Origin: a virus
Virus record (IMG/VR): IMGVR_UViG_3300026097_001399
Location: 1 to 24,093 of that record
DNA: 24,093 bases
Strand: one strand, 5' to 3'
In this document: positions 3,258-24,093 of the stretch, one piece after another
Layout of the letters: each line of letters opens with the position of its first letter
Numbering within the stretch: the first letter of the stretch is position 1
Made by a program: the position numbers and the translations under genes
The notes under the pieces: model-generated
Told to the model about the DNA's origin: nothing
The model's input: the letters and a program-made list of their open reading frames with translations, nothing else
Database searches by the model: none

Positions 3258-4346
3258 CTATTCCTCCAGTTGTTCCCATGGCACATCTTTGTTGCCAAAG
3301 TGTCCATATGTGCATTGTTTACTATACTTGGTAAAGTTAAACAAGTCAAATCTTTTTATAATACCGTATGGTGTTAGATCAACGGAATTACACCAACGTA
3401 GAATTGCATCTGTATCACCGTCGCTGTCTACATAAACAGCCATTGGTTCCTTAACGCCAATAGCATAACTCAATTGAACAGTGCACCAATTAGCCATGCC
3501 TTTTGCTACAGCGTTTTTTGCCAACCAGCGAGCCATGTATGCTGCACTACGATCTACTTTGGAGGGATCTTTTCCGCTGAAAGCACCCCCACCGTGAGGA
3601 GCGTAACCGCCATAAGTGTCAACAATAATTTTTCTACCGGTGAGTCCTGCATCCCCATCTGGGCCACCAATAACAAACTTGCCAGTAGGATTGATGTATA
3701 GCTTAGTAATTCCTTCATTGTATAAATTTCCCAGTGTTTGCTTGATTGCTTGTTTTGCCAGTCGTTCTGCATCAAGTTCGTGCCCTTCGGTGTGTTGCGT
3801 GCTTACAACCACACTGGTTGCATGATCGGGCTGACCGTCTTTGTAGGCAATACTCACTTGGCTCTTTGAATCGGGGCCAAGTACATGCAAGTTCTGCTGG
3901 CGAATCTCTGCCAAGCATTTTAAAATTTCATGCGAGTAGTGAATGGGTGCGGGCATGTAACTGGGTGTTTGATTACAAGCATACCCAAACATTATGCCTT
4001 GATCCCCTGCTCCAAACTCATCTGTGCCCAAGCTGATGTCGCCACTTTGTTTGTGTAGGTGATTGTGCACTGTTAACTTGCGCCAGTCAAATCCTTCTTG
4101 TTCGTAACCAATCTGTTTGACCACATCTTTGACTATGTTTTCCACTTGATCTGTAGAGAGATTAAAGTTTTTCACTTCGCCTGCTACGCACACATAATTA
4201 GTTGTAACCAATGTCTCAATTCCTGCACGAGTGGTTTCGTCCCCTGCTTCAAGAGCCGCATCCAGTAATGCATCTGAAATCTGGTCTGCAATTTTATCAG
4301 GATGCCCTGCACTCACCGATTCACTGGTAAAAATATAATCTGTCAT
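3258..4346 (-). CDS. metK: S-adenosylmethionine synthetase
   Basis: The 362-residue protein is a full-length methionine adenosyltransferase, making SAM from methionine and ATP. The signatures are all present: GHPDK at 14-18, the GAGDQGIMFGYA loop at 112-123, and GGGAFSGKDPSKVDRSAAY starting at 252. Bacterial MetK is about 384 residues, so this copy is slightly compact at the ends but lacks no core motif. An AAGGAAACAACAA ribosome binding region precedes the ATG. It lies 17 bases behind queE in the operon served by the promoter near 5,900. QueE needs SAM as a cofactor, so co-expression makes sense. Extra SAM could also serve methyltransferases or offset SAM loss. MetK is uncommon as a phage gene. 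Confidence 0.96.
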   Translation of the reverse strand: MTDYIFTSESVSAGHPDKIADQISDALLDAALEAGDETTRAGIETLVTTNYVCVAGEVKNFNLSTDQVENIVKDVVKQIGYEQEGFDWRKLTVHNHLHKQSGDISLGTDEFGAGDQGIMFGYACNQTPSYMPAPIHYSHEILKCLAEIRQQNLHVLGPDSKSQVSIAYKDGQPDHATSVVVSTQHTEGHELDAERLAKQAIKQTLGNLYNEGITKLYINPTGKFVIGGPDGDAGLTGRKIIVDTYGGYAPHGGGAFSGKDPSKVDRSAAYMARWLAKNAVAKGMANWCTVQLSYAIGVKEPMAVYVDSDGDTDAILRWCNSVDLTPYGIIKRFDLFNFTKYSKQCTYGHFGNKDVPWEQLEE

Positions 4347-4363
4347 TTGTTGTTTCCTTATTA

Positions 4364-5215
4364 TTATGTGCCCCAGCCGTTGCCGAAAATATCGACATGT
4401 AATCTAGGACTGTATCGCCAACCCTCTGACATTGCTAGATGGGCTACGTTTTTGGCGTTTGCTTGATATTCCTCAGCGCACCCGCCAACGGGCATAATAT
4501 ATACTGGTGCACGTACTCCTGCAAGCGCATATTGGGTAACAGCTTGACGAACTTCCTCCAGATCGGCCTGATCACCAACCACAAACTTAAAATAGAGGTT
4601 GCTGTTAGGAATGTTAGAATATTCCACTGCAATTTCAGGCCTAATAGCAGAATCCCAAGATTCTCCCGAAACACTGAGTTTTGGGCTACAAGAAAAAGTC
4701 CATGTAATCTGCTTTTGAGTTTCGAGGAATTCACGGAAAGGTCCGCGTAGCTGTTGAGTTGTATTTGTCTCAAAAGTGACATTTTTTAAATCCTTCATTT
4801 TAGGGTGGCCGAACAGATCTGCGTACAATCTTTGCCATCCTAGTAGAGGTTCCCCTCCTGTTAAAATAAGATGTATGTCTTGCCCGTTGTCTAGTGTCCA
4901 ACTGCCGTTTGGTGTTAACTCCAGTAATCGATCTACTACTTCATCAAGTTCACTATCAGTAGCAAGGTGCTTAAACCTAGGATCCCAACTAGCGTAGCTG
5001 TCGCATCCGGTGCGTACAAGAGGTAGTTCCTCAAATGTTGTATAATCTGTTGCAATGACATTTTTATATTCCTCACTTAATTGGCCTTTGGGCATGCCAA
5101 AACCTTCGCATTTAAAATTGCAGCCAAATGTACGCAGGAATACACTAGGCACGCCTACAAACTGTCCTTCGCCTTGCACACTATAAAATGCTTCTGTGTA
5201 TCTTAACTTTGGCAT
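4364..5215 (-). CDS. queE: 7-carboxy-7-deazaguanine synthase (radical SAM)
   Basis: QueE converts 6-carboxy-tetrahydropterin to 7-carboxy-7-deazaguanine (CDG) using a radical SAM 4Fe-4S centre. The 283-residue product starts MPKLRYTEAFYSVQGEG, the classic QueE opening. The start at 5215 overlaps the queD stop as TAATG, and a longer ATG at 5263 lies inside queD. The cluster cysteines appear as GCNFKC (Cys32, Cys36), with the third displaced to Cys71 in TGCDSYASW. That block matches the usual CDTxYTW, so about 34 residues are inserted between the second and third cysteines. The glycine-rich SAM-binding block ILTGGEPLL follows. A VYIMPVGG motif lies near the C-terminus. Neighbours queD and metK support the role. 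Confidence 0.93.
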   Translation of the reverse strand: MPKLRYTEAFYSVQGEGQFVGVPSVFLRTFGCNFKCEGFGMPKGQLSEEYKNVIATDYTTFEELPLVRTGCDSYASWDPRFKHLATDSELDEVVDRLLELTPNGSWTLDNGQDIHLILTGGEPLLGWQRLYADLFGHPKMKDLKNVTFETNTTQQLRGPFREFLETQKQITWTFSCSPKLSVSGESWDSAIRPEIAVEYSNIPNSNLYFKFVVGDQADLEEVRQAVTQYALAGVRAPVYIMPVGGCAEEYQANAKNVAHLAMSEGWRYSPRLHVDIFGNGWGT

Positions 5216-5802
5216 TATTTTTCTAGCCTTGCTAATGCATCTTGCGGTGACTCCCAGTCCCATTCAGGAATCATTGGCAATGTCTTGTCCTTTGCCATTT
5301 TACGCTGTGCGTCAGTTTTAGCAGTTTCCTCATCAACTTCGCACATAGCATCGTTGCGATCATGCTCGTACACACGCACTCGCTCTACATAACAACGACC
5401 TTGTGTGATCTTGTAAATGTAGTGATTAACATGTTCCCAGATAAACAAACTGCTCATTTCCATGCTTACGCCACTGGGCAATACACGTAATGTGCCCAAT
5501 AGGCCATTTGTTTCGATGTGATCACTGCCGCGAAGTTGCTCCAATCGCGGATCGTCTGCTGGAAGAACAGTAACATGATCAAAATAGTATTCTAAAAACT
5601 CCTTCACAGGCTTTAGCCCGCCAAACGGAACAATCCATCCATGCTCGTCTGGTTCACCTGCAAATGTAAATTCTACACTGCGATCATATCCGTGAATTTG
5701 GGCACAATGTCCAGGTGATCCATCTTCTTTGATATCAAACCACTGTGCATGCCCACAAGGTAGATACTTGTATACTTTGGTTGACTTAATCTTAATACTC
5801 AT
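5215..5802 (-). CDS. queD: 6-carboxy-tetrahydropterin synthase (QueD-like)
   Basis: QueD makes 6-carboxy-5,6,7,8-tetrahydropterin from dihydroneopterin triphosphate, the step before QueE. The 195-residue protein has a T-fold pattern. It shows CGHAQWF (His18, a zinc ligand), then CAQIHGYD with the catalytic-type Cys33 and His37, and VPFGGLKPVKEFLEYYFDH in the position of the usual DFG.LK....LDH block. VRVYEHDRNDAMCE near residue 160 supplies the substrate-binding glutamate. The third zinc histidine of the canonical CxxxHGH is a tyrosine here (Tyr39), which is unusual. It is longer than bacterial QueD (about 120 residues) because of an insertion and a C-terminal tail. A GGAGG ribosome binding site precedes the ATG. 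It is the first gene of the promoter-driven queD-queE-metK group. Confidence 0.88.
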   Translation of the reverse strand: MSIKIKSTKVYKYLPCGHAQWFDIKEDGSPGHCAQIHGYDRSVEFTFAGEPDEHGWIVPFGGLKPVKEFLEYYFDHVTVLPADDPRLEQLRGSDHIETNGLLGTLRVLPSGVSMEMSSLFIWEHVNHYIYKITQGRCYVERVRVYEHDRNDAMCEVDEETAKTDAQRKMAKDKTLPMIPEWDWESPQDALARLEK

Positions 5803-5868
5803 CTCTTGCCTCCGTTGAGTAAGTTTGATGACGCAGAATTTTTAAAGTGGGTTGATGTCGAGACCACT

Positions 5869-5891
5869 GTGTATAATAGAGTATTATACAC
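5869..5891. repeat. Perfect 10-bp inverted repeat overlapping the -10 box
   Basis: The arms gtgtataata (5869-5878) and tattatacac (5882-5891) are perfect inverted copies with a 3-base centre. One arm contains the -10 box of the queD promoter and the other covers the expected transcription start. It may be an operator for a dimeric repressor, or it may form a short hairpin. As it is AT-rich, chance cannot be excluded. The symmetrical arm also contains a TATAAT on the other strand. Confidence 0.5.
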
Positions 5892-5911
5892 GGTATACGA
5901 GGATTTGTAAA
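5883..5911 (-). promoter_or_regulatory. Sigma70-type promoter for queD-queE-metK
   Basis: On the minus strand TTTACA (5911-5906) and TATAAT (5888-5883) are separated by exactly 17 bases, one mismatch from the full consensus. It starts two bases after the stop codon of the 2OG oxygenase gene. It would initiate near 5,876 and leave a leader of roughly 70 bases before queD. This is the clearest break in an otherwise overlapping gene chain, so it probably gives queD, queE and metK early expression by host RNA polymerase. Confidence 0.75.
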
Positions 5912-5912
5912 G

Positions 5913-6428
5913 TTATTTATCACAGATCTGTATTGCAAGAACACTGCGAAGCTCCCCGCAGTTTCTTGTAGGAGCACGGCCAACATGCGGGTACTTGCTG
6001 TTGAAAATTACAGCAGTGCCCGGTTTTGGTAAAACTGATGTGGTACTGTCTTCAAAAATAAAAGTTTCTCCGCCCCAGTTATGATCCCAGCGTTTGTTGA
6101 GATACAAAACACAGGTGATGTGATCATCGTCAGGATGATCTATGTGCACATCCCCATCTAATCCATAGGTGTTGCCTGCAATCATTACTCTTAGTATTTT
6201 TTTGTTCGGATAAAGATCCAACAATTGTTTTACAAGTTCTTTTACGCTTGTAACACAAATATCTTTGAATCGTGATGCATATAGATCATATAAATTGATA
6301 AACCACATAGGATATGCAGTGTTTTCGTTGCTTTTCTGACCAAATCTCCACAACGGTTGATTTATAAGTTCTCGATTTATTTGTTCCAACTGTTGTTCAG
6401 TTGCAAAATTATCTATAATTTGACTCAT
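5913..6428 (-). CDS. 2-oxoglutarate/Fe(II)-dependent oxygenase
   Basis: This 171-residue protein has the double-stranded beta-helix metal triad of 2OG-Fe(II) dioxygenases: His95 and Asp97 in DVHIDHPDDDH and His148 in YPHVGRAP. Arg161 in RSVLAIQI is placed to bind 2-oxoglutarate. The block GGETFIFED is typical of the prolyl-hydroxylase-like group common in marine T4-like phages. The substrate is not predictable, and hydroxylation of a protein, sugar or base are all possible. I chose the ATG at 6428 (MSQIIDNFATE), which overlaps the previous gene by 20 bases. A start at 6467 would overlap by 59. It is the last gene before the queD promoter. Confidence 0.85.
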   Translation of the reverse strand: MSQIIDNFATEQQLEQINRELINQPLWRFGQKSNENTAYPMWFINLYDLYASRFKDICVTSVKELVKQLLDLYPNKKILRVMIAGNTYGLDGDVHIDHPDDDHITCVLYLNKRWDHNWGGETFIFEDSTTSVLPKPGTAVIFNSKYPHVGRAPTRNCGELRSVLAIQICDK

Positions 6429-6594
6429 TGTTCTTTGATAGTGCCGCAACAGCCTCGGTTTGAACATCTAATAACAATTCTCGAATCATGTCTTGTCTGA
6501 GACTGTTGAAGCCACGATCTATTTGCCATTTGTGAAGTTCCAACACATTGTCTAACTTATCTTTGAGATCTTGTACAATTTTTTCACTGATCAT
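6409..6594 (-). CDS. Small helical hypothetical protein, 61 aa
   Basis: Starting at the ATG at 6594 (MISEKIVQDLKDKLDNVLEL), this 61-residue protein is almost entirely alpha-helical by composition. It has charged heptad-like repeats, so a helical bundle or dimer is likely. An AAGGA ribosome binding site lies about 9 bases before the ATG, and the gene overlaps the previous one by 11 bases. A start at 6645 would overlap far more and add a sequence without similar character. No function can be assigned. Confidence 0.6.
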   Translation of the reverse strand: MISEKIVQDLKDKLDNVLELHKWQIDRGFNSLRQDMIRELLLDVQTEAVAALSKNNESNYR

Positions 6595-6766
6595 TTTCAG
6601 AATCCTTTTTATCGCTAATACTCCACGTGCCGTCTTTGTTATCATGCCAGTATAGCACAGTGCCTTCTTTCCAGCCCATTTCTTCCAACAAACTTTCTGG
6701 AAAAGGCAAGATTAAATTGCCCTCGTTGTCCTCTTCGAGGTTTGCAACATAATTTTTATCATTCAT
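6584..6766 (-). CDS. AbrB/MazE-like small protein, 60 aa
   Basis: The 60-residue sequence contains EGNLILPFPESLLEEMGWKE followed by GTVLYWHDNKDGTWSI. This is the swapped-hairpin pattern of AbrB/MazE/SpoVT domains (a strand, then P..LL..LGW.EG, then a W.D..DGTW strand). Such proteins are often dimeric DNA-binding regulators or antitoxins. No toxin gene is seen next to it, so a regulatory or structural role is as likely. Similar tiny proteins occur in marine T4-like phages. The start overlaps the phosphoribosyltransferase gene by 8 bases. Confidence 0.7.
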   Translation of the reverse strand: MNDKNYVANLEEDNEGNLILPFPESLLEEMGWKEGTVLYWHDNKDGTWSISDKKDSENDQ

Positions 6767-7325
6767 ACTTGCCTACGGCCTCCCATGGATACACAAGCCA
6801 AACGTCCTTTTCTGCTTTGTTAACTTCGTGGGCATAGTAACTAACCAAATCAAACTCTGAACTCAAATTTTCTGTGATCACAGCAAACCGCACGTTGCGT
6901 CCCCATACACTGTTCCATGCTTCTAGTTCATGTGGTAAACAACTGCTTTCCCAATCATTTTTAATCCAGTTGAATGTAGCGCCTGTGTCGTTGATATCAT
7001 CAACGATTAGAATATTTTTGCGTTGCTTTATGTCCCAACGACAGCCTGTTACGCCACTTTCTTCTGTATAGTTATAACCAAACGCATCTTCGCTCATCCA
7101 GCAATTGGTCTCACTGCCGTGTCCGCTTTTATTGTCGCGAAGACTAACTTTAAGTGCTTCGCCGCCAACATCCAACATGTTGCTGATAATAGTAGCAGGA
7201 ACATTACCACCTCTGGTTATACCTACAACGTAGTCAGGAATCCACGCATCTTTGTGCATCTGAGTACAGATATCCATGCATGCTGTTTCTATGTCTTGCC
7301 AACTGTAGTAGTGTTTTTCTATCAT
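6759..7325 (-). CDS. Purine-type phosphoribosyltransferase
   Basis: The 188-residue protein is a type I phosphoribosyltransferase. The PRPP-binding signature ILIVDDINDTGATF covers residues 105-118, and an upstream VVGITRGGNVPA (33-44) forms the pyrophosphate loop. The organisation resembles xanthine-guanine phosphoribosyltransferase, which joins a purine base to PRPP. Nucleotide salvage for phage DNA synthesis is the simplest role. In this genome the enzyme could also recover the guanine released when DpdA replaces it, which is an inference. A strong AAAGGAGG site precedes the ATG, and the start overlaps the cupin stop as ATGA. Confidence 0.85.
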   Translation of the reverse strand: MIEKHYYSWQDIETACMDICTQMHKDAWIPDYVVGITRGGNVPATIISNMLDVGGEALKVSLRDNKSGHGSETNCWMSEDAFGYNYTEESGVTGCRWDIKQRKNILIVDDINDTGATFNWIKNDWESSCLPHELEAWNSVWGRNVRFAVITENLSSEFDLVSYYAHEVNKAEKDVWLVYPWEAVGKYE

Positions 7326-7762: not shown

Positions 7763-8195
7763 CACCACTCCGTTTGATAGTATCGATCATGTGTTTTTGT
7801 TCTATCAAGTCTTCCAAACTGGGCAACGATTCTAGCTTGTGTTTCACTTCAGGACTGTCGCACAATGCTTGTTCTACCATTTCTACTCGGGTAATAATAG
7901 CATCCAGTTTATCGTCTATACGTTCCAGTGTTTCGGCAACTTTTATTTCTTTGCCTGCGCCTCTGTGTATGGTAACATCATTTGGCTGATCCAGTATATC
8001 TGTTAGTGTAAACGAATAGTCACTGTGATCGAACCAACCACTACCGCTCATGTTATCGTCTGAAAAAGACAAATCTAGGGCAGAATCATCTGCTCCTAGA
8101 TCTAGTGTGATTGTGTCCTCTGTGTTGTTACTACAGTCCTCGCTGAGCACTATAATGTTAAAAGGATCATAATGGTGATTAGAATTTGAACTCAT
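7755..8195 (-). CDS. Hypothetical protein with C-terminal coiled coil, 146 aa
   Basis: I use the ATG at 8195 (MSSNSNHHYDPFNI), which overlaps the protease stop by 17 bases. The longer frame from 8267 would lie inside the protease coding region. The N-terminal two thirds are acidic and serine-rich, with beta-type repeats such as DTITLDLGADDSALDLSFSD and DYSFTLTDIL. The C-terminal third (KVAETLERIDDKLDAIITRV and on) looks like an amphipathic coiled coil. The beta-rich then helical layout suggests a small structural or assembly protein. I do not recognise a family with certainty. Confidence 0.65.
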   Translation of the reverse strand: MSSNSNHHYDPFNIIVLSEDCSNNTEDTITLDLGADDSALDLSFSDDNMSGSGWFDHSDYSFTLTDILDQPNDVTIHRGAGKEIKVAETLERIDDKLDAIITRVEMVEQALCDSPEVKHKLESLPSLEDLIEQKHMIDTIKRSGDV

Positions 8196-11100
8196 ATTCC
8201 ACGCCGTATTCCACAACATCTTGATCTGTGCCGGCATAGTTGACCCTATTCTCAACGTATGCACCAAGGTTGTGATTGTCTGTATTATAACTTAAACTTA
8301 CACCAAAGTCAACTTCGGTATAGCCACTGCTGAGATTTGCTGTTTGTCGCTGAGTGATTACCTTGCCGTCTATGGTGCGTGCAACTGGAACATCTAAATT
8401 AAGATCCCCGCTTACAATCCGAGTAGGAATACTTGCTGTAGCACCAAACACATAGTCGCTAACATTTTTAAACATCCCGACATGAGCTGATACGCTTGTC
8501 ACGTTGTTGACTTCAGAAACTAAACTACTGTCTGCACCGGCATTGTTAATGCTGTATCCTAATTCTGTGCGTCCGATAAAGTCAAGCCCAAACATGTTCT
8601 TAGACGCTGTGTAAGCGCCGTACACAGTACGAGTATGATCATCTAATGCAAATACTCCACTAAAATCATTGCCCAACAATTGATCTTTTTCTTGCACAAA
8701 CCCAATCTCCCAACTGTTGTACTGTTTGGCAATACCAAACGAGTTTTGGTTGTGTCCTGATACTACCAAGCCCATTGCACGTTGAACACTGCCTGCTAGA
8801 CTAGCAAAACTGGACGTGACCTTACCTTGACTGAGATCCTTGGCCCAACTAGCGACACGAGTATCTTCTGTAAAGTTAGCACTGCTGAGATCAACGTAGA
8901 AGTCACGTTCAAACTTGTCCAGCACCATTGTATTGCTAGCCACACTTCCTAAGTTGATGTTACCTCCGACACCGCCGCTCAACTGTGCTACGCCGCCATC
9001 GGTTCGGCCTGTTTTGGGGATTCCGGTAGCACCCACTGGTTGCGTAGCACTATCCATGTCAAGCAATCCTTGTCCGTGTACATTTTCATTGTAGTTGGGA
9101 ATGTCTTTGTTTGCTGTAGTTAGTACTAATTTAGCCAAGTTTGGTGCTGTCATGTGTGGCCACATTTGATGCAACACTGCTACTGCACCTGCAACTGCCG
9201 GAGCTGCCATACTAGTTCCACTCATATGATTGTAATTGTTGTTGCGCACACTGCTATAAACACTGCTCCCCGGAGCCATAATATAGAAGTCTTTGATCCT
9301 GTATGCATCGTTGCACTGTTGAACAGCATCATTCCAATCCAAGCAAACATGTCCTGCTTTATTACTGGACGGATCGATGCGATCGTTTGCCGAGTTCCAG
9401 TTGCCTACAATCAACATTCTGCCATCTAACACAAGATCGCCATTGTCGTCTGTGACTGTGGCCATTAGACCCGGGTAAGCTGCGTAGTCTAGTCCGTCGT
9501 TGCCGGCAGCCACTGTTAGTACAGTTTGATTGTTGTCTGCAGATACCCAATTTTTTGTGTCATCTACATAACCATTGTAACCGTTGGTGCTGTAGTACCA
9601 ATGGTTGTTGCTGAACATACCATTGCCGTGGCTCTCAAGATTGTTTTTCCAGCCACTGTCGAAATTACTGCTGGCACTCATGTTGTAAACCACTGCTCCG
9701 TTTTGATGTGCCCAAGCAAGCCCTTGCTTGGCGTAAAAGAAACTGTAACCCGTGTTGTTGGTTACTTTGGCAATTAGCAGTTTAGCATCAGGTGCAACAC
9801 CCACGGATCCGTTGTTGTTCAACTCTCCGGCTGCAATACCGGCTACATGAGTGCCATGACCGTCTAAATCACTGACATTTGAAGATCCGTCTAAGAAATT
9901 TTTAGTGCCAATTATTTGATCGTCCAATTCTGCATGATTAACGTCGGCACCTGTGTCGGCAATAGCAATAATACTGCCTTTGCCCGTCCATCCTCTGCTC
10001 CATGCAGCATCTACTTTGATTTCTGCAAGATGATCATCGCCTTTGCTGTCAGTGGCCCAAAATTCTTGCTTGCTTCTATATTCGTCTGCAGAAAGCACAC
10101 CGGCAGTAGGAGTGCCTAATGCTGAATCAGAATATTCAACATCAACATATCCGTCAAAATCGTCTTCAACTTCTTGTGTATCATCCACAGATTGATTGTT
10201 CTTTATGGATACATCAGTTTGTTCAACCACAGTTTCTTTTTTAGGAGAAGCAATTATTTCTTCTGTGGTTACACGGCGAACAATTTTTGTTTTTGTACTT
10301 TCGTCGCTGTATGTTTCCTTGATTGTATCATCCCAGATAGTTTCCACTACTTCGATCTGACCGGTTGTAATTCTATATTCGGTATACTCTGCGATCACAG
10401 TATCACCGTTGGAATTTACACTTTCCTCCTCGTAGACACGAATAAGTAACTTTCTCACGTCTCCGTCTTTGACTTCGATAATTCTGCGAGCCTTCATTTC
10501 GGTACCCATAACTGTTGACTCGGTAAGCGAAACAACTGGCTCTTCAACAACTGGTTCTTCTACCACTGGCTCTTCAACAACTGGCTCTTCTACCACTGGC
10601 TCTTCTTCAACTACCACTGGCTCTTCTTCAACTACCACTGGCTCTTCAACTACCACTGGTTCTTCAACTACCACTGGCTCTTCTTCAACTACCACTGGCT
10701 CTTCAACTACCACTGGCTCTTCTTCGATAACTACTTCGCCGTCGGAGCCGGTTACTACTACTAAATTGTTTTCCTGTATGATATTATCTGCTTGTTGTTG
10801 TGATTCTACAGCAACAATTTGAGATTCGGAATAGATATAATTTTCAAATTGCCCCGGATCGGCAATAATGTTTGCTTGTGAAACATCAATAGGTTTGCCG
10901 TAGCTGATTTGTTCTACCAAGGGTTTGACTTTTTGCGATAAAAACTTAAAACTGGCCGCGGCAGTGTAATAATCACTGCTGTACAATATTTGTGCTTGTT
11001 TGATTGGATCTAGCTGATTAATAGAAGCCTGTAAAGCAGACCATGTTGACTCGAGCGCACGAATTGCTCTTGTAGCTGTGTGTGCTATTTGTTGATCAGA

Positions 11101-11325
11101 ACCTGTGGGATTGGTCAGACTACTCAGTCGCCCAAGTGCATTTAATTGTTGTTCGAGACCGCTGATATTAGCTTGTACTTGAGAAATATTTTGGTTTAAC
11201 CCGGCTTCGTTGAGAATGTTTTGCACAGGTTGAGAAATGGTGTTTGCACCAGAGTTACCTCCACTGCCGCATCCCGCCAACAGGGCTGTAGCCGAAACTG
11301 CAAGTGCTAATTTTGAATACTTCAT
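8179..11325 (-). CDS. Lipoprotein subtilisin-like (S8) protease with C-terminal barrel-like domain
   Basis: This 1048-residue secreted protease is the largest gene in the window. Residues 1-19 are a lipoprotein signal ending in LLAGC (lipidated Cys19, no Asp at +2, so outer-membrane sorting is expected). A helical region follows to about 195, then eleven acidic EEP repeats at about 200-265. The S8 domain has Asp457 (IADTGADVNH), His490 (DGHGTHVAG), oxyanion Asn609 (VAAGNDG) and Ser705 (GTSMAAP). The last 250 or so residues are beta-rich and end in VEYGVEYEFKF. The terminal phenylalanine is typical of outer-membrane barrels, as in autotransporter-like proteases. The gene has its own promoter. 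Such a cargo gene is unexpected in a T4-like phage, and it may modify or shield the host surface. Confidence 0.92.
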   Translation of the reverse strand: MKYSKLALAVSATALLAGCGSGGNSGANTISQPVQNILNEAGLNQNISQVQANISGLEQQLNALGRLSSLTNPTGSDQQIAHTATRAIRALESTWSALQASINQLDPIKQAQILYSSDYYTAAASFKFLSQKVKPLVEQISYGKPIDVSQANIIADPGQFENYIYSESQIVAVESQQQADNIIQENNLVVVTGSDGEVVIEEEPVVVEEPVVVEEEPVVVEEPVVVEEPVVVEEEPVVVEEEPVVEEPVVEEPVVEEPVVEEPVVSLTESTVMGTEMKARRIIEVKDGDVRKLLIRVYEEESVNSNGDTVIAEYTEYRITTGQIEVVETIWDDTIKETYSDESTKTKIVRRVTTEEIIASPKKETVVEQTDVSIKNNQSVDDTQEVEDDFDGYVDVEYSDSALGTPTAGVLSADEYRSKQEFWATDSKGDDHLAEIKVDAAWSRGWTGKGSIIAIADTGADVNHAELDDQIIGTKNFLDGSSNVSDLDGHGTHVAGIAAGELNNNGSVGVAPDAKLLIAKVTNNTGYSFFYAKQGLAWAHQNGAVVYNMSASSNFDSGWKNNLESHGNGMFSNNHWYYSTNGYNGYVDDTKNWVSADNNQTVLTVAAGNDGLDYAAYPGLMATVTDDNGDLVLDGRMLIVGNWNSANDRIDPSSNKAGHVCLDWNDAVQQCNDAYRIKDFYIMAPGSSVYSSVRNNNYNHMSGTSMAAPAVAGAVAVLHQMWPHMTAPNLAKLVLTTANKDIPNYNENVHGQGLLDMDSATQPVGATGIPKTGRTDGGVAQLSGGVGGNINLGSVASNTMVLDKFERDFYVDLSSANFTEDTRVASWAKDLSQGKVTSSFASLAGSVQRAMGLVVSGHNQNSFGIAKQYNSWEIGFVQEKDQLLGNDFSGVFALDDHTRTVYGAYTASKNMFGLDFIGRTELGYSINNAGADSSLVSEVNNVTSVSAHVGMFKNVSDYVFGATASIPTRIVSGDLNLDVPVARTIDGKVITQRQTANLSSGYTEVDFGVSLSYNTDNHNLGAYVENRVNYAGTDQDVVEYGVEYEFKF
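10531..10726 (-). repeat. Tandem Glu-Glu-Pro repeat stretch in the protease gene
   Basis: About 195 bases encode eleven units of the form VVEEP, VVVEEP or VVVEEEP (residues about 200-265). The DNA itself is repetitive, alternating actggctcttc and taccactggc type blocks, with unit lengths of 15, 18 or 21 bases. It should form an extended, negatively charged linker between the N-terminal helical domain and the catalytic domain. Repeats of this kind change length by slippage. Confidence 0.9.
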
Positions 11326-16871: not shown

Positions 16872-18329
16872 TTATTCCTCCTCAAATAAGGCACCAAATT
16901 GGGTGCTAGCATTTACAGTTTTCTTGCCGACGTTGAGTCTAGTGCCAATCACCTGCATCCAGAATTTGCTGTGCTGATCAATCAATTCCAAACTTTTTTC
17001 TCTGTCTTGTAAACTGAAAATTTCGTCCACAAGATCTCTGTGTGTAATAGTTTCAAAACGTTCGTCAATCAGCATGTGAGGATATAGTCCAGAATCGTAT
17101 TCTCTGTTGCTACGCTGTGTGCTTTCAATGTGCATCCACACATTGTGCGACATCTGTAGCGCATAACTAAAACTATCCCACGAAGTTTTGCCTTCCTTGC
17201 CTATTTTATTTAGATCACCTGGCTTGTATATACAGATATCTTGAATGCTCAAATGATCGCTAATAGGTGATTCCTCAAAACTAGGCAGTATGCCCTCGTT
17301 GATCACTACATCACCGAACTTGCGACGGTCTGTTGCATATTTTTTATCATCGGCACTTGGACTCATCATGTAACTCCATTTGCCTCTATCTTCGATTCTA
17401 ATATTGTGATATATCTGACCATTTGCAGTAGCAAGAAACGGACTAGCACAATCGTATGTGATCATAAAGTTTGGATTGTGATATTTGCGCACTGCACGTT
17501 GTATGTCTGTTAGCAAACATGCCCACTCTAGTTTGCTAGTGCCTAGGAAATGCATCACATCATGCACGCCTTGTTCTAGCAAACCGTCGTGAATAAGATG
17601 TACAAGCCTGCGCAAGATCAAGTGTACATCGCACATGTTCTGACCACCCATTGCCCAGCCATCAAAGTGTGTTTCTGGGTACTTAGCAGGATCACAATAG
17701 TCTTTGAATTCTTCATACCAACTGTCAGCATCAGCATGATTGCTGCCTTGTAACACATTCAGTACTTTGAAGTTGCCACGACGGTTAGCCATATAGTATT
17801 GAGCATTGATGTGTGTTGCATCAACAGCATCTTGATAACTGTAAATACCACTGGCCGCGGCCGCTTTAGGATCTTGAAATGTCCAAGTAGGAATATCCAG
17901 CATCATACCGTAATCCATATACTCTTCCATCCACTCTACTACCAAGCGGCGTTTTTCGGCTGCCTTTGGGCAGTTGGGATTTTTCCAATCACCTTCCCAT
18001 AATCCTTTGGCAATCTGGAATCCGCCCGAATCGCCCAACAACCACGAATTTTCTCTGTCACGCTGGCGCACCATGTTTTCCTTGGCTATTTCTTTGGCGG
18101 TATCAAGGTTTGCATGACCTGCTGAATACAATGCCCACTTGTACTGGAATGCGCCTTCTTGTACATTTAGAAAGTTTAGTGCTTCAACGCTGCCGAGACC
18201 AGCTGGGACCCTTGCAGGATCTACATAGTTTTCTTCACGCTGTTTGCCAATGAAAGTGGCATAAAACCCGCTTATGCTAGGCAAAAACACAGCATAGTCT
18301 TGTTGTGTTGCTGTTAGGTTTTGATTCAT
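16872..18329 (-). CDS. dpdA: DpdA-like 7-deazaguanine DNA transglycosylase
   Basis: The 485-residue protein belongs to the tRNA-guanine transglycosylase superfamily. In order it shows LLGDSGGFQIAKG (DSGGFQ at 100-105, with the conserved base-recognition Asp100), MMLDIPTW (142-149), VLQGSNHADADSWYEEF (from 192), GWAMGGQN (224-231), HFLGTSKLEW (from 260) and ITYDCASPF. Asp293 in that last block is the likely nucleophile. The CxCxxC zinc site of tRNA enzymes is not seen. Phage members of this group (DpdA) exchange guanine in DNA for a 7-deazaguanine base. The start overlaps the clamp stop as TAATG, and queD/queE occur in the same window. A tRNA substrate is the main alternative. Confidence 0.85.
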   Translation of the reverse strand: MNQNLTATQQDYAVFLPSISGFYATFIGKQREENYVDPARVPAGLGSVEALNFLNVQEGAFQYKWALYSAGHANLDTAKEIAKENMVRQRDRENSWLLGDSGGFQIAKGLWEGDWKNPNCPKAAEKRRLVVEWMEEYMDYGMMLDIPTWTFQDPKAAAASGIYSYQDAVDATHINAQYYMANRRGNFKVLNVLQGSNHADADSWYEEFKDYCDPAKYPETHFDGWAMGGQNMCDVHLILRRLVHLIHDGLLEQGVHDVMHFLGTSKLEWACLLTDIQRAVRKYHNPNFMITYDCASPFLATANGQIYHNIRIEDRGKWSYMMSPSADDKKYATDRRKFGDVVINEGILPSFEESPISDHLSIQDICIYKPGDLNKIGKEGKTSWDSFSYALQMSHNVWMHIESTQRSNREYDSGLYPHMLIDERFETITHRDLVDEIFSLQDREKSLELIDQHSKFWMQVIGTRLNVGKKTVNASTQFGALFEEE

Positions 18330-20003: not shown

Positions 20004-20987
20004 TTAAAACTCAAACAAACTGTCAAAAGTTGTGCTAGTATCGGTCTTTTCTTTGAGATCCCAATCTAGTTCGCCTAATAGATTGTTGACTTTTGCATCA
20101 ACAATTGTTTCTGTCATTAGGTCGTCATCAAACGGTAATTCTTTAAACCAATTTGGAATATGTAATTCGTCAATTGGGTATGCTACACTGGTATAGCCCA
20201 TGGGATTGTGTTTGAGCTTGCACACAATTGTTTTTTGCCCATCCATTATTTCCATGGAATATTTGTCTCCGTTCATTTCACGCAGACTATTCCAATTGAG
20301 TGCTGCTCTGACGTGGCCCGGCATGTTCACTTTGCCTTTTCTTGCTAATTCATTGCGAAACTTGGTCAAGTTGTTTACACGTTTGGGTGTGCCTTTTTCC
20401 CAACTGGGCATTTGTTTAAATTCCAGTTTAAAGTCACGGATTCGCTCTGTAACATAATCTTCACCTAGATCCATCAGTGTATCCAACAAAATACTGCTGA
20501 GAAAGTCTTGCATAAACTTTGGTGTGTCCGACCTTTTTAGGTCAAGGCCCATTGCTTTTACCTTGCCTGGCTTTCCGTCTATGTCTTTGCGCTCGCCTTC
20601 GTCATCATAAACCAGTAATGCATAGCGTTTCTTAGTGATAAACAATCCGCTTTCGGCCACAGCTTCTCGTCCACACTGCACAATTTCACCGTACTTTCTT
20701 GGACAAGCAAATGCACGTTTCATGAAGTCAGGAAAGCTCGCAGACACTTGTTCGCCAATTTGATCATACAATTGTACTACTGTGTCTTTGTCCCAGGTCA
20801 TGGTGCCTGATTCAACTTCCTTGCGCACAGCCGGCCATGCACTAAAATAGCAGGAATCTGTGTTGTGTAAAAGAATATCATTGCCAAAAAAGAATGGATC
20901 GCCATCAGCAATACTTATATCGTAAACATAATCATCGTCGGTGTTAACAAGCTCTACAGATTTTACTCGTTCTCTGATAGTATCCAT
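20004..20987 (-). CDS. gp43: DNA polymerase family B, C-terminal half with split-intein C fragment
   Basis: This gene carries a 42-residue C-terminal intein fragment followed by the rest of the polymerase. The fragment ends in VYDISIADGDPFFFGNDILL and then the terminal His-Asn (HN). The C-extein begins TDSCYFSAW, the second half of the catalytic YGDTDS motif C, and runs 285 residues through the thumb region. It ends in a phenylalanine-rich tail (STTFDSLFEF) of the kind that binds the sliding clamp. I use the ATG at 20987, with an AAAGGA site about seven bases upstream. An ATG at 20996 is also possible. The start overlaps the endonuclease gene by 25 bases. Alone it lacks the exonuclease and most of the palm, so protein splicing in trans is required. 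Confidence 0.93.
   Translation of the reverse strand: MDTIRERVKSVELVNTDDDYVYDISIADGDPFFFGNDILLHNTDSCYFSAWPAVRKEVESGTMTWDKDTVVQLYDQIGEQVSASFPDFMKRAFACPRKYGEIVQCGREAVAESGLFITKKRYALLVYDDEGERKDIDGKPGKVKAMGLDLKRSDTPKFMQDFLSSILLDTLMDLGEDYVTERIRDFKLEFKQMPSWEKGTPKRVNNLTKFRNELARKGKVNMPGHVRAALNWNSLREMNGDKYSMEIMDGQKTIVCKLKHNPMGYTSVAYPIDELHIPNWFKELPFDDDLMTETIVDAKVNNLLGELDWDLKEKTDTSTTFDSLFEF
20862..20987 (-). other. C-terminal split intein fragment (IntC)
   Basis: Codons 20987-20862 encode 42 residues with intein block F (VYDISIADGDPFFFGNDILL) and block G ending in HN. The next residue is threonine, the usual kind of +1 nucleophile. It should pair with the fragment at the end of the first polymerase gene to restore the YGD-TDS junction. 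Confidence 0.92.
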
Positions 20988-21919
20988 TTTTTGCATTCCT
21001 TTAAAATTTTATTGGGATTTTCTAAAAATTCACTTTCCCAAATAACTAAACATTTAATATTTCTTTCAGACAGTAAAAGTTTTATTTTTTGACTATCTTC
21101 TTTCCATATATCACTGGCAACCTTGTTAACAACAGAATGGTAATAATTTTCAACAAAAAATTTAGGATTGCAGTGCCAGTAATCTCCATTATATTCAATT
21201 GCTTTGTTGTTGTGCACTATATCATAAAAATTAGCTTTGTTATGGCCGTAGACGCAGTACTGTTTTGTATTGCACGAATAGTCTAAGCTAAATCCTAAAT
21301 ATTTTTCTAATTCATCTACAAAAAATTTTTCTGTATTGCTAACATAATTTGTAGTATGTACTCTTTCCTGCAATATTATTACTGCCGTTTCTGTATCGCA
21401 ATTATATCTTTTACAAATATTTTCTATAGAGTGTGATTTTTCTTTGCAGATTTCTTTATATTTTTTTGTACCTTGTTCTTTGCCATACTTTTCTACAAAA
21501 TAATCTATGGTATTTGTGTATGCTTGTCGCTCGCAATAGTTTTGCCAGCGTATTGTGCCTTCCGCTTCTCCGTGTTTTTTGATTAGATTTTTCAGTGTAA
21601 CTGCTCTACTTTTGTTAAAGTCTTCAAAATCTTTATCTGTCCAGCCGTATTTTTCTTTTTTATATTCATAAGAATTAGAATATGCCTGTTTTTGTTTATA
21701 TGCCTGCCACCGCAGTTTTCCTTCTTCGACTCCGTGTTTTTTAATTAGATTAGATTCAGTGACGGCTGTATTTTTTGCTAAAGCGTCATCTACAAGTTTT
21801 GCTTCCGGATAAACTTTTTTGTATTCTCTACCGTTTGCGAATCGTCCTGTGCAATTATATTTGAAATGTGTCCATTGCAATCTTGGGGCTTCAAAGCCGC
21901 ATTCTAAACATTTAGGCAT
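20963..21919 (-). CDS. Free-standing Vsr-like homing endonuclease
   Basis: The 318-residue protein sits between the two polymerase halves. An N-terminal zinc-finger-like segment has Cys4, Cys7, His18 and Cys23. At least two tandem DNA-binding repeats follow, each of the form LIKKHG.(E/A)EG..RWQ.Y...QAY.N, which are typical of phage homing nucleases. The C-terminal domain contains AIEYNGDYWHCNPKFF and KIKLLLSERNIKCLVIWESE, the pattern of very-short-patch-repair (Vsr, EDxHD) nucleases. An AGGAG site precedes the ATG. The coding region is clearly more AT-rich than neighbouring genes, a sign of separate origin. It would cut intein-free polymerase genes and spread the whole arrangement. Confidence 0.88.
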   Translation of the reverse strand: MPKCLECGFEAPRLQWTHFKYNCTGRFANGREYKKVYPEAKLVDDALAKNTAVTESNLIKKHGVEEGKLRWQAYKQKQAYSNSYEYKKEKYGWTDKDFEDFNKSRAVTLKNLIKKHGEAEGTIRWQNYCERQAYTNTIDYFVEKYGKEQGTKKYKEICKEKSHSIENICKRYNCDTETAVIILQERVHTTNYVSNTEKFFVDELEKYLGFSLDYSCNTKQYCVYGHNKANFYDIVHNNKAIEYNGDYWHCNPKFFVENYYHSVVNKVASDIWKEDSQKIKLLLSERNIKCLVIWESEFLENPNKILKECKKWILSENE

Positions 21920-21944
21920 ATGGCGATACTCCTGTTGTCATAAA

Positions 21945-22319
21945 CTATTTATCGCCTAGGACGGTAATTAATAAATCATTTGGTTGCAATTCAGTTGGTT
22001 TAACTTCACATGTAAAACCATCTCTGTCCACAATTAGACTATGATCTTCTGTTACGATAATTTGCTTTCCAGATTCGCTTGTAACTTTATATTTTTTCTT
22101 TAAAGTTGAATGACGCATAACATACGAAATATTATAAAAGGAAGCCTGATCCTCATAACTATTGTAACCTAACACTTTATGATCATTGTTTTTAGAAGTA
22201 GGAATCGCGTATTCTTTGTTGTTATCTTGAATAACCCTATATTCGATGTTATTAAAAAGTTCTTCGATACTAATTTTGTTGCCGTTTGACAAAGTTATTA
22301 AAGTATTGCCAGTTACACT
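21945..22319 (-). other. N-terminal split intein fragment (IntN)
   Basis: Starting at Ser1 (22319-22317) directly after VIYGD, 124 residues match the N-terminal part of a polymerase intein. SVTGNTLITLSNGNKISIEE is block A, and IIVTEDHSLIV contains the TxxH motif of block B. The intein lies in the same YGD/TDS site as known archaeal DNA polymerase inteins. The frame then stops at 21945 with no endonuclease domain fused, which is what makes it a split intein. A serine as first residue matches polymerase inteins at this site. Confidence 0.92.
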
Positions 22320-24093
22320 ATCGCCATATATAACTGCATCGCCAACGTGATTGTATTCACCTACAATCAGTTCATTTGCATATGCATCCATGTGCTTGGC
22401 AATTTGTCTGCCAGTGAGTGTAGTTGATTGACCAATGCGCTTATCAAAGAATCTACAACCAGGGTTAAGAATAGCACCATACAAACTGTTCAAGTTAATT
22501 TTCTTGACCAGCTGTCTCTTATCCCAAAACTCTCTGTCTTCTGGTGTTTGTGCGTCTTTCTTTTTCTTCTGCAACTCCTTGCGTTCTGCATACCAACGTT
22601 CTAGCAGCCCAGGCACAACACCTTGTATATCGTAGCGGAAGATAGTGCCATTTGCACTCAACACCCATGGTTCACTGCTGAGATAGATTAGTTTATAAAT
22701 CTCTGCGCCTGTTAGTGTGTCCGATTCGCCGTTTTCCCAGTCTACTGTGATAGGATGAGTGGTGTCTTGTGACATAACATATCCGTATTCTCTACTGCCA
22801 AACTCCCCCTCCCAGGCCTCAGCAAAGCTCTTTTTCTTGGCCATTCTTGACTCAACCATTTCTTCTGTGTAGTCCTGTCGGAGCTGACCAAGAATGGTTT
22901 CGGGTGCCATGTTAAGAGCACGAATCACACTAGGATATAGACTGTTCAAGTCAATACTGCCAATCCATTTGTGCATGCCTTTTTTGGGATATGCAACATA
23001 AGCACCAGCTGCGGCAGTATTTTCGCCGTGATCCTTGCGATTGGGCACCACCATGCCGCGTTCGTGTGCCTCGTTGATAATGGCTTGTTCAGTAACAGCA
23101 ACTGCTCCCATGGTTGTTTGTAGCAACACTGTGTTGGCATGGGCTAGTTCATTTGCAAGGGCTAGAAATTTAAGTTTTTTGTCTAGCTTTCCTAGTAGAG
23201 CAGTATCTTGTCTGTTGTAGTCGATAAACTTTTCAAAATCGTGATTGTACAATTGATCAAGTGTACCTTCATAAGCAACTTTCTTTTCACTTAGTTCGTG
23301 CTCGCCTATGGCATCAAGGCTATAGCTGTGTCGTTCTTCGTAGGTGTATTTTCTGTACAGTTGCATATAGTCCATGTGCACTCTGCCTACTAGATCAAAT
23401 GTTTCATTTTCAGCACCATATCTTTCAAAAGTGCGTTTTTTAGGAAACTGATTCCACAAACAAAACTGCCGAGTGTACTCCTTGCCCAGCACTTTGGTAA
23501 TGCGATTCACTGTGTACGGAATATCATATCCTTCGCTGTTCCACCCACTTAGCACATCAGCATCTTCGATCAGTGCTAAAAAAGTTTCCAGCATGTCTTC
23601 TTCGCGGTCAAACATAAAAGTATTGCCAAATTTCTCGGCAATCTGCTGTGCTTCTTGTGCATCTACAGTTTTTGGCGGAATAGCAAGAGTTACCAATTGA
23701 TCTAGCCAGTCTAGATAGACTGTAATAGCTGTGATTTTGTTGAAAGGATCACTGGGCGGCGAAAAGCCTTTGGTGGTATCAAAGTCAGCCTCAATATCAA
23801 AAAAAGCTGTTTGAAGTTCAGGGGCATCGTGGTTATAGTAATTGTTGGCAAGACATCTAAACACTGGATTGATATCACTCTCAAACAGTGCTTTTTGCCC
23901 ATGAATTTTCAGTTCTTTGCGAAATTCTTTTTGTGATTTACAACGAACTTGTGTTACGGGATCTCCGTAGATACTGCGATGTTTGCCTTTGGGATCTGCA
24001 TAGTAGAAAGTAAATTCTACTGGGTATTCACGAAACTCTCGTTGACCGCGAATGCGTTCCACAATGTGAATAGTGTCTCGATCTCTGTCAAAC
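21945..24093 (-). CDS. gp43: DNA polymerase family B, N-terminal half with split-intein N fragment, 5' end beyond the window
   Basis: The frame enters from the right edge with no start codon in view (FDRDRDTIHIVERIRGQRE), so the gene begins outside. It encodes the 3'-5' proofreading exonuclease with TAFFDIEADFD (Exo I), LSGWNSEGYDIPYT (Exo II) and YNRQDTALLG (Exo III). The polymerase parts are IDLNSLYPSVIRAL (motif A) and KKINLNSLYGAIL (motif B). After VIYGD the polymerase is cut in the middle of motif C and a 124-residue intein N fragment follows, ending at a TAG at 21947-21945. The polymerase aligns in style with T4 gp43, especially the marine T4-like type. The product is inactive alone and must be joined with the C half. 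Confidence 0.95.
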   Translation of the reverse strand, partial: FDRDRDTIHIVERIRGQREFREYPVEFTFYYADPKGKHRSIYGDPVTQVRCKSQKEFRKELKIHGQKALFESDINPVFRCLANNYYNHDAPELQTAFFDIEADFDTTKGFSPPSDPFNKITAITVYLDWLDQLVTLAIPPKTVDAQEAQQIAEKFGNTFMFDREEDMLETFLALIEDADVLSGWNSEGYDIPYTVNRITKVLGKEYTRQFCLWNQFPKKRTFERYGAENETFDLVGRVHMDYMQLYRKYTYEERHSYSLDAIGEHELSEKKVAYEGTLDQLYNHDFEKFIDYNRQDTALLGKLDKKLKFLALANELAHANTVLLQTTMGAVAVTEQAIINEAHERGMVVPNRKDHGENTAAAGAYVAYPKKGMHKWIGSIDLNSLYPSVIRALNMAPETILGQLRQDYTEEMVESRMAKKKSFAEAWEGEFGSREYGYVMSQDTTHPITVDWENGESDTLTGAEIYKLIYLSSEPWVLSANGTIFRYDIQGVVPGLLERWYAERKELQKKKKDAQTPEDREFWDKRQLVKKINLNSLYGAILNPGCRFFDKRIGQSTTLTGRQIAKHMDAYANELIVGEYNHVGDAVIYGDSVTGNTLITLSNGNKISIEELFNNIEYRVIQDNNKEYAIPTSKNNDHKVLGYNSYEDQASFYNISYVMRHSTLKKKYKVTSESGKQIIVTEDHSLIVDRDGFTCEVKPTELQPNDLLITVLGDK

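What the first reader, a model, noticed from the sequence alone, without database searches (positions are those of the whole stretch)
20862..22319. Replicative polymerase broken inside its catalytic motif by a split intein with a free-standing endonuclease between the halves
The sequence directly shows VIYGD joined to an intein block A start with Ser1, a stop codon after 124 residues, a separate Vsr-like endonuclease gene, then a 42-residue intein end (HN) followed by TDSCYF. Joining the outer parts restores YGDTDS exactly. Fractured genes with split inteins and Vsr-like free-standing endonucleases were described from marine metagenomes (Dassa and co-workers, 2009). An essential family B polymerase split in its metal-binding motif makes phage replication depend on trans-splicing. 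The intein pair may be a useful new orthogonal set.
Basis: partly seen in the sequence, partly recalled or inferred. Interest (0 to 1): 0.88.

Follow-up and report, generated by a model that had tools for sequence, protein, structure and literature searches.

The report
Split-intein DNA polymerase gene in phage
A bacterial virus carries its DNA-copying enzyme as two separate gene pieces that almost certainly rejoin as proteins by a self-cutting "split intein", with a probable DNA-cutting mobility gene parked between them; the arrangement is real and looks functional, but the same kind is already known from several other phages.

Summary
On the minus strand the family B polymerase runs to VIYGD, followed by a 124-residue IntN (Ser1) and a stop, a 318-residue endonuclease gene, then a 42-residue IntC (from the likely start) ending HN and joined to TDSCYF. 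The insert is exactly 20862-22319. Most relatives found with the C-terminal part (46-66% identical) carry uninterrupted YGDTDS, the empty site. At least 22 distinct metagenomic phage loci show the same order of parts. Catalytic residues of Ser1 inteins are all present. The joined halves match the crystallised, trans-splicing Aes123 PolB1 split intein (9HTH, E=1.6e-21). The endonuclease's C-terminal domain folds like the I-Bth0305I (EDxHD/Vsr) catalytic domain. Intein and endonuclease histories track each other more closely than either tracks the polymerase, and the insert is patchy among polymerases, as expected of a homing unit. It is not new in kind: annotated or published relatives occur in Aeromonas, Campylobacter, Pseudomonas (MIJ3/PA5oct) and Tenacibaculum phages. 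The distinguishing detail is the site: YGD|TDS with Thr+1 (the archaeal/N. equitans pol-c site), two codons upstream of the YGDTD|S, Ser+1 site of the characterised Aes123/CP21 inteins. Splicing and homing are untested here.

The parts
22320..24093 (-). PolB N-extein (exonuclease domain and polymerase up to ...AVIYGD); gene start lies beyond the window end (MSYVDALFDRDRDTIHI- in the 83-kb contig)
   Evidence: phrog_262 DNA polymerase 2.6e-144; Pfam DNA_pol_B 6e-28; start read in G001
21948..22319 (-). IntN, 124 aa, Ser1; NX-motif His70, block B T90/D92/H93; stop TAA at 21947-21945
   Evidence: Pfam Intein_splicing 1.1e-9, TIGR01445 2e-11, 9HTH match, invariant residues
20963..21919 (-). Free-standing endonuclease, 318 aa: N-terminal Cys/His finger-like domain, helical repeats, C-terminal EDxHD/Vsr-like nuclease domain (about residues 190-318)
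   Evidence: phrog_22677 5e-53; invariant E197, D233, H249, K278; profile top hits Vsr and 3r3p; fold match 3r3p prob 0.96
21929..21933 (-). AGGAG, putative ribosome-binding site 9 nt before the endonuclease ATG
   Evidence: sequence read
20997..21001 (-). AAGGA, putative ribosome-binding site 9 nt before the ATG at 20987 (C-part start inside or next to the end of the endonuclease gene; frame overlap suggests translational coupling)
   Evidence: sequence read; overlap also seen in many relatives
20862..20987 (-). IntC, 42 aa from M4 (45 from the upstream ATG at 20996), ends ...GNDILLHN
   Evidence: Pfam Intein_splicing 9e-4, TIGR01443 0.003, conserved Asp, His, Asn
20007..20861 (-). PolB C-extein, 285 aa, TDSCYFSAW...; stop at 20006-20004
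   Evidence: phrog_1918 3.7e-50; C-part 52.6% identical over residues 10-328 to the PA5oct-group polymerase

Best explanation
This is a 'fractured' phage PolB gene. Two co-oriented genes encode N-extein-IntN and IntC-C-extein. The two intein fragments associate and fold. Ser1, assisted by His70 and His93, forms an oxyester, Thr+1 attacks it, and Asn cyclisation after the penultimate His releases the intein. The result is an intact 883-residue polymerase with an uninterrupted YGDTDS motif. The gene between the halves encodes a free-standing EDxHD/Vsr-type homing endonuclease. It most likely cuts or nicks the uninterrupted polymerase gene of co-infecting phages near the same motif, so that repair copies IntN, endonuclease and IntC as one cassette. 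Shown: anatomy, homology, conserved catalytic residues, empty-site relatives, patchy distribution and co-inheritance of intein and endonuclease. Inferred: splicing activity of this pair, cleavage, and the target.
For: Intein profile matches for both halves. The joined halves match the solved, trans-splicing Aes123 PolB1 intein 9HTH over residues 2-168, E=1.6e-21 (PMC11923092). Ser1, H70, T90, D92, H93, the IntC Asp and the final Asn are conserved in 100% of the aligned inteins, the penultimate His in 97%. 27 relatives carry the uninterrupted YGDTDS site. 22 distinct loci have the order PolB-N, IntN, endonuclease, IntC, PolB-C. On the polymerase tree empty, site-A and site-B alleles are interspersed (15 changes, shuffled mean 17.8). 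Intein and endonuclease distances correlate at 0.81, intein and extein at 0.49, partial 0.75. The endonuclease is under purifying selection, dN 0.13 and dS 1.33 against L044. Its nuclease domain folds like I-Bth0305I, prob 0.96. No RNA family is found in the window.
Against: No splicing, cleavage or homing has been measured for this locus. The Vsr assignment rests on weak profile scores (E about 0.2) and one structural match with E 0.057. IntN dN/dS could not be computed because dS was saturated. The 83-kb contig is identical to the window and may come from the same reads, so it is not fully independent.
Confidence: 0.9

Rival explanations
1. The halves work as a two-subunit polymerase without splicing; the intein fragments are vestigial tails.
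For: Split gp43A/gp43B of Aeromonas phage 25 co-purify and are active (PMC2988022).
Against: That split is described without an intein. Here the break falls inside the YGDTDS metal-binding motif and every catalytic intein residue is kept.
Confidence: 0.05
2. Assembly artefact or decayed pseudogene.
For: The window is a metagenomic fragment; the second contig may share reads.
Against: 22 distinct loci and several isolate genomes have the same order of parts; all frames are open; purifying selection acts on the endonuclease.
Confidence: 0.01
3. Rejoining at RNA level (intron or trans-splicing) or by frameshift or read-through.
For: Aes508 has a group I intron elsewhere in the same gene.
Against: No Rfam match up to E=1 in the window; both insert ends encode intein residues in frame.
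Confidence: 0.01
4. The intervening gene is not a homing endonuclease for this site but an unrelated passenger nuclease.
For: PA5oct/MIJ3 polymerases carry an HNH-annotated endonuclease in the same position instead, so the occupant can change.
Against: Full-length relatives of this endonuclease lie between IntN and IntC of PolB; intein and endonuclease distances track each other.
Confidence: 0.08

Closest known systems
Aes123/Aes508 PolB1 split intein of Aeromonas phages (9HTH; CLm/CL inteins; PMC11923092)
   Same: PolB of T4-like phage, typical split point of the intein, Ser1 chemistry with NX His, VSR-annotated endonuclease between the halves
   Different: Site two codons downstream (YGDTD|S, Ser+1); intein about 34% identical; the Aes508 gene is split a second time and holds a group I intron
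MIJ3/PA5oct split PolB intein (PMC6892783)
   Same: Closest isolate polymerase in sequence (C-part 52.6%); split intein with an endonuclease between
   Different: YGDTD|S site; endonuclease annotated HNH, no match to this one
[quoted passage not shown]
   Same: Split PolB inteins with Ser1; LCGC14 reported as highly efficient in trans-splicing
   Different: Ser at +1, against Thr+1 here; CP21 about 31% identical
Nanoarchaeum equitans split Pol and archaeal/Mimivirus pol-c inteins (PMC549080)
   Same: Exactly the same insertion site, YGD|TDS; N. equitans is also split
   Different: Archaeal or eukaryotic-virus host genes, not phage
Klebsiella phage KP13-7 PolB (L007)
   Same: Isolate with split intein at YGD|TDS and a related endonuclease between
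   Different: Intein only about 30% identical; annotated as hypothetical proteins
Fractured genes (Dassa et al. 2009) and EDxHD/Vsr endonuclease I-Bth0305I
   Same: Architecture and nuclease fold (PMC12350094)
   Different: Dassa paper not held; its host genes (gp41, NrdJ, IMPDH and others) are recalled, not checked

Membership tests
Fractured gene with split intein | Host gene interrupted, each half fused to an intein fragment | tested here: met
Fractured gene with split intein | Free-standing endonuclease gene between the halves | tested here: met
Fractured gene with split intein | Uninterrupted homologues define an exact empty site | tested here: met
   L016-L042 carry contiguous YGDTDS
Fractured gene with split intein | Protein trans-splicing | not testable with these tools
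   needs co-expression
Class 1 Ser1 split intein (Aes123-like) | Ser1, NX His, N3 TxxH, C2 Asp, His-Asn, Ser/Thr+1 | tested here: met
   +1 Thr read; NX motif as in PMC10189870
Class 1 Ser1 split intein (Aes123-like) | Strictly free of cysteine | tested here: not met
   one non-catalytic Cys104 in IntN; CP21, LCGC14 and GOM inteins also have one at a non-conserved position, so this does not bar the chemistry
Class 1 Ser1 split intein (Aes123-like) | Same insertion site as Aes123 (YGDTD|S) | tested here: not met
   site is YGD|TDS, the pol-c site of PMC549080
EDxHD/Vsr homing endonuclease | Conserved E, D, H, D residues in the C-terminal domain | tested here: met
   E197, D233, H249, K278 invariant, D275 nearly so in 21 sequences; the equation with the published EDxHD positions is by inspection
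EDxHD/Vsr homing endonuclease | Vsr-type fold | tested here: met
   top Foldseek match 3r3p, prob 0.96, TM 0.52/0.65, E 0.057; profile top hits Vsr and 3r3p but E about 0.2
EDxHD/Vsr homing endonuclease | Cuts or nicks the uninterrupted host gene | not testable with these tools
   needs cleavage assay

The most novel reading that the evidence does not exclude
Phage PolB split inteins with EDxHD endonucleases occupy two insertion points exactly two codons apart (YGD|TDS with Thr+1, YGDTD|S with Ser+1). The same endonuclease family serves both, so one DNA target may drive two intein alleles, and inteins may have moved between the two points. The window would represent an uncharacterised, possibly orthogonal Thr+1 group.
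Probability: 0.4. Interest if true: 0.5.

Novelty: new member of a known kind. Interest (0 to 1): 0.35.

Why it matters
It adds a sizeable group of split inteins at the pol-c site (Ser1/Thr+1) in phage polymerases for which no characterised member was found in the papers searched. They are about one third identical to the engineered Aes/CL inteins and so possibly orthogonal tools. The mixture of empty and two-site-occupied alleles in related polymerases also offers a natural system for testing how a fractured essential gene and a free-standing endonuclease spread together.

Tried and rejected
The whole-endonuclease fold search found nothing significant; only the isolated nuclease domain gave the I-Bth0305I match. 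RNA families and tRNAs: none in the window. A single origin of site-A inteins is only weakly rejected (AU p=0.03), and the endonuclease tree does not reject it, so a site shift is a hint, not a result. The idea that the endonuclease moves freely between intein lineages was dropped because intein and endonuclease distances agree; L084 (N-terminal 53 residues 83% identical, intein at site B) is an isolated, truncated exception. Dassa 2009 and Petrov 2010 are not in the held library.

Full report
OBSERVATION. Reading the minus strand, a family B DNA polymerase frame ends ...NHVGDAVIYGD|SVTGNTLITLSNG... The 124 residues after YGD form an intein N-fragment that ends at a TAA. After 25 bases comes a 318-codon ORF. 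Overlapping its end by 34 bases is a frame that encodes ...VYDISIADGDPFFFGNDILLHN|TDSCYF... and continues as the polymerase C-terminus. The polymerase start lies outside the window and was read in an 83,266-bp contig of which the window is an exact substring. The spliced enzyme would be 883 residues.

WHAT THE PARTS ARE. The exteins match phage polymerase families at up to 2.6e-144. Both intein halves match intein models. Joined for a search, they match the crystal structure 9HTH with E=1.6e-21 over nearly the whole length. That entry is the Aes123 PolB1 split intein of Aeromonas phages; the wild type splices fast but only to about 30% because its N-fragment aggregates (PMC11923092). In an alignment of 31 inteins Ser1, His70 (the NX-motif histidine specific to Ser1 inteins, PMC10189870), Thr90, Asp92, His93, the IntC Asp and the last Asn are invariant, and the penultimate His is 97% conserved.

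THE ENDONUCLEASE. It belongs to phrog_22677, unknown function. In 21 relatives the invariant residues include E197, D233, E242, N244-G245, Y247-W248-H249 and K278. A profile search of solved structures puts three Vsr entries and then I-Bth0305I on top, though at E 0.18-0.3. Ten of 21 members match Pfam MTES_1575, a restriction-endonuclease-like family. The full-length model finds nothing significant, but the nuclease domain alone (mean pLDDT 95) has the I-Bth0305I catalytic domain as best match, probability 0.96, E 0.057. An N-terminal Cys/His domain and repeated helical units precede it. This resembles the EDxHD/Vsr outgroup described in PMC12350094.

RELATIVES AND HISTORY. A search for the C-part gave 27 loci with uninterrupted YGDTDS. 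A search for the endonuclease gave 22 distinct loci (35 before removing near-copies) with all five parts in the same order. Two insertion points occur: site A, YGD|TDS with Thr+1 (window, KP13-7, SCTP-2 as a contiguous mini-intein, and most close relatives), and site B, YGDTD|S with Ser+1 (Aes508, CP21, MIJ3, PTm1, Lak phages). Site A is the pol-c site shared with archaea, Mimivirus and the split polymerase of N. equitans (PMC549080). On the polymerase tree empty, A and B alleles are mixed (15 changes against 17.8 for shuffled labels). On intein and endonuclease trees the sites cluster. Intein and endonuclease distances correlate at 0.81, intein and extein at 0.49, partial 0.75. This is the pattern of a cassette that moves between polymerases as a unit. 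DNA at the joined site is partly conserved across occupied and empty alleles, mainly at first and second codon positions.

HOW IT WORKS. The best-supported mechanism is protein trans-splicing that restores the polymerase, combined with homing by the free-standing endonuclease. Anatomy and conservation are shown; splicing by this pair, cleavage and homing are inferred. Non-spliced assembly of two subunits is possible in principle (phage 25 gp43A/B) but is unlikely when the break lies in a catalytic motif flanked by intact intein halves.

STANDING. The finding is real and correctly read, but it is a new member of a known kind. The same gene with the same arrangement is annotated as 'intein-containing split DNA polymerase precursor' in Aes508 and PTm1, described for MIJ3 (PMC6892783), and exploited from Aes123, CP21 and marine metagenomes (PMC12707363). 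The mildly new element is the extent of the pol-c, Thr+1 group in viral metagenome contigs and its two-codon offset from the characterised group.

Noticed in passing
window 8179-11325 (-): 1048-residue subtilase (Peptidase_S8 3.7e-40) with a lipoprotein-like N-terminus, a VEEPVV repeat tract (about 10530-10730) and a possibly outer-membrane-barrel-like end; unusual in a phage.
   Followed up: partly
window 3258-5802 (-): Adjacent genes for S-adenosylmethionine synthetase (TIGR01034 1e-128), a QueE-like radical SAM protein and a QueD/PTPS-like protein, suggesting 7-deazaguanine modification of phage DNA or tRNA.
   Followed up: partly
window 16872-18329 (-): 485-residue protein with no Pfam, PHROGs, NCBIfam or PDB match.
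   Followed up: partly
L006 (Salicola phage SCTP-2) 4001-4489: Contiguous mini-intein at the same YGD|TDS site whose penultimate His is Lys (NILLKN); possibly a rejoined form or a relative of the ancestor of the split ones.
   Followed up: no
L084 5602-6300: Site-B split intein followed by an endonuclease whose first 53 residues are 83% identical to the window's while the intein is 34% identical; the frame is broken and the contig ends, so possible domain exchange could not be tested.
   Followed up: no
L002 (MIJ3) 5347-7029: In the PA5oct/MIJ3 group a differently annotated (HNH) endonuclease occupies the same place between the intein halves, so the endonuclease appears replaceable.
   Followed up: partly
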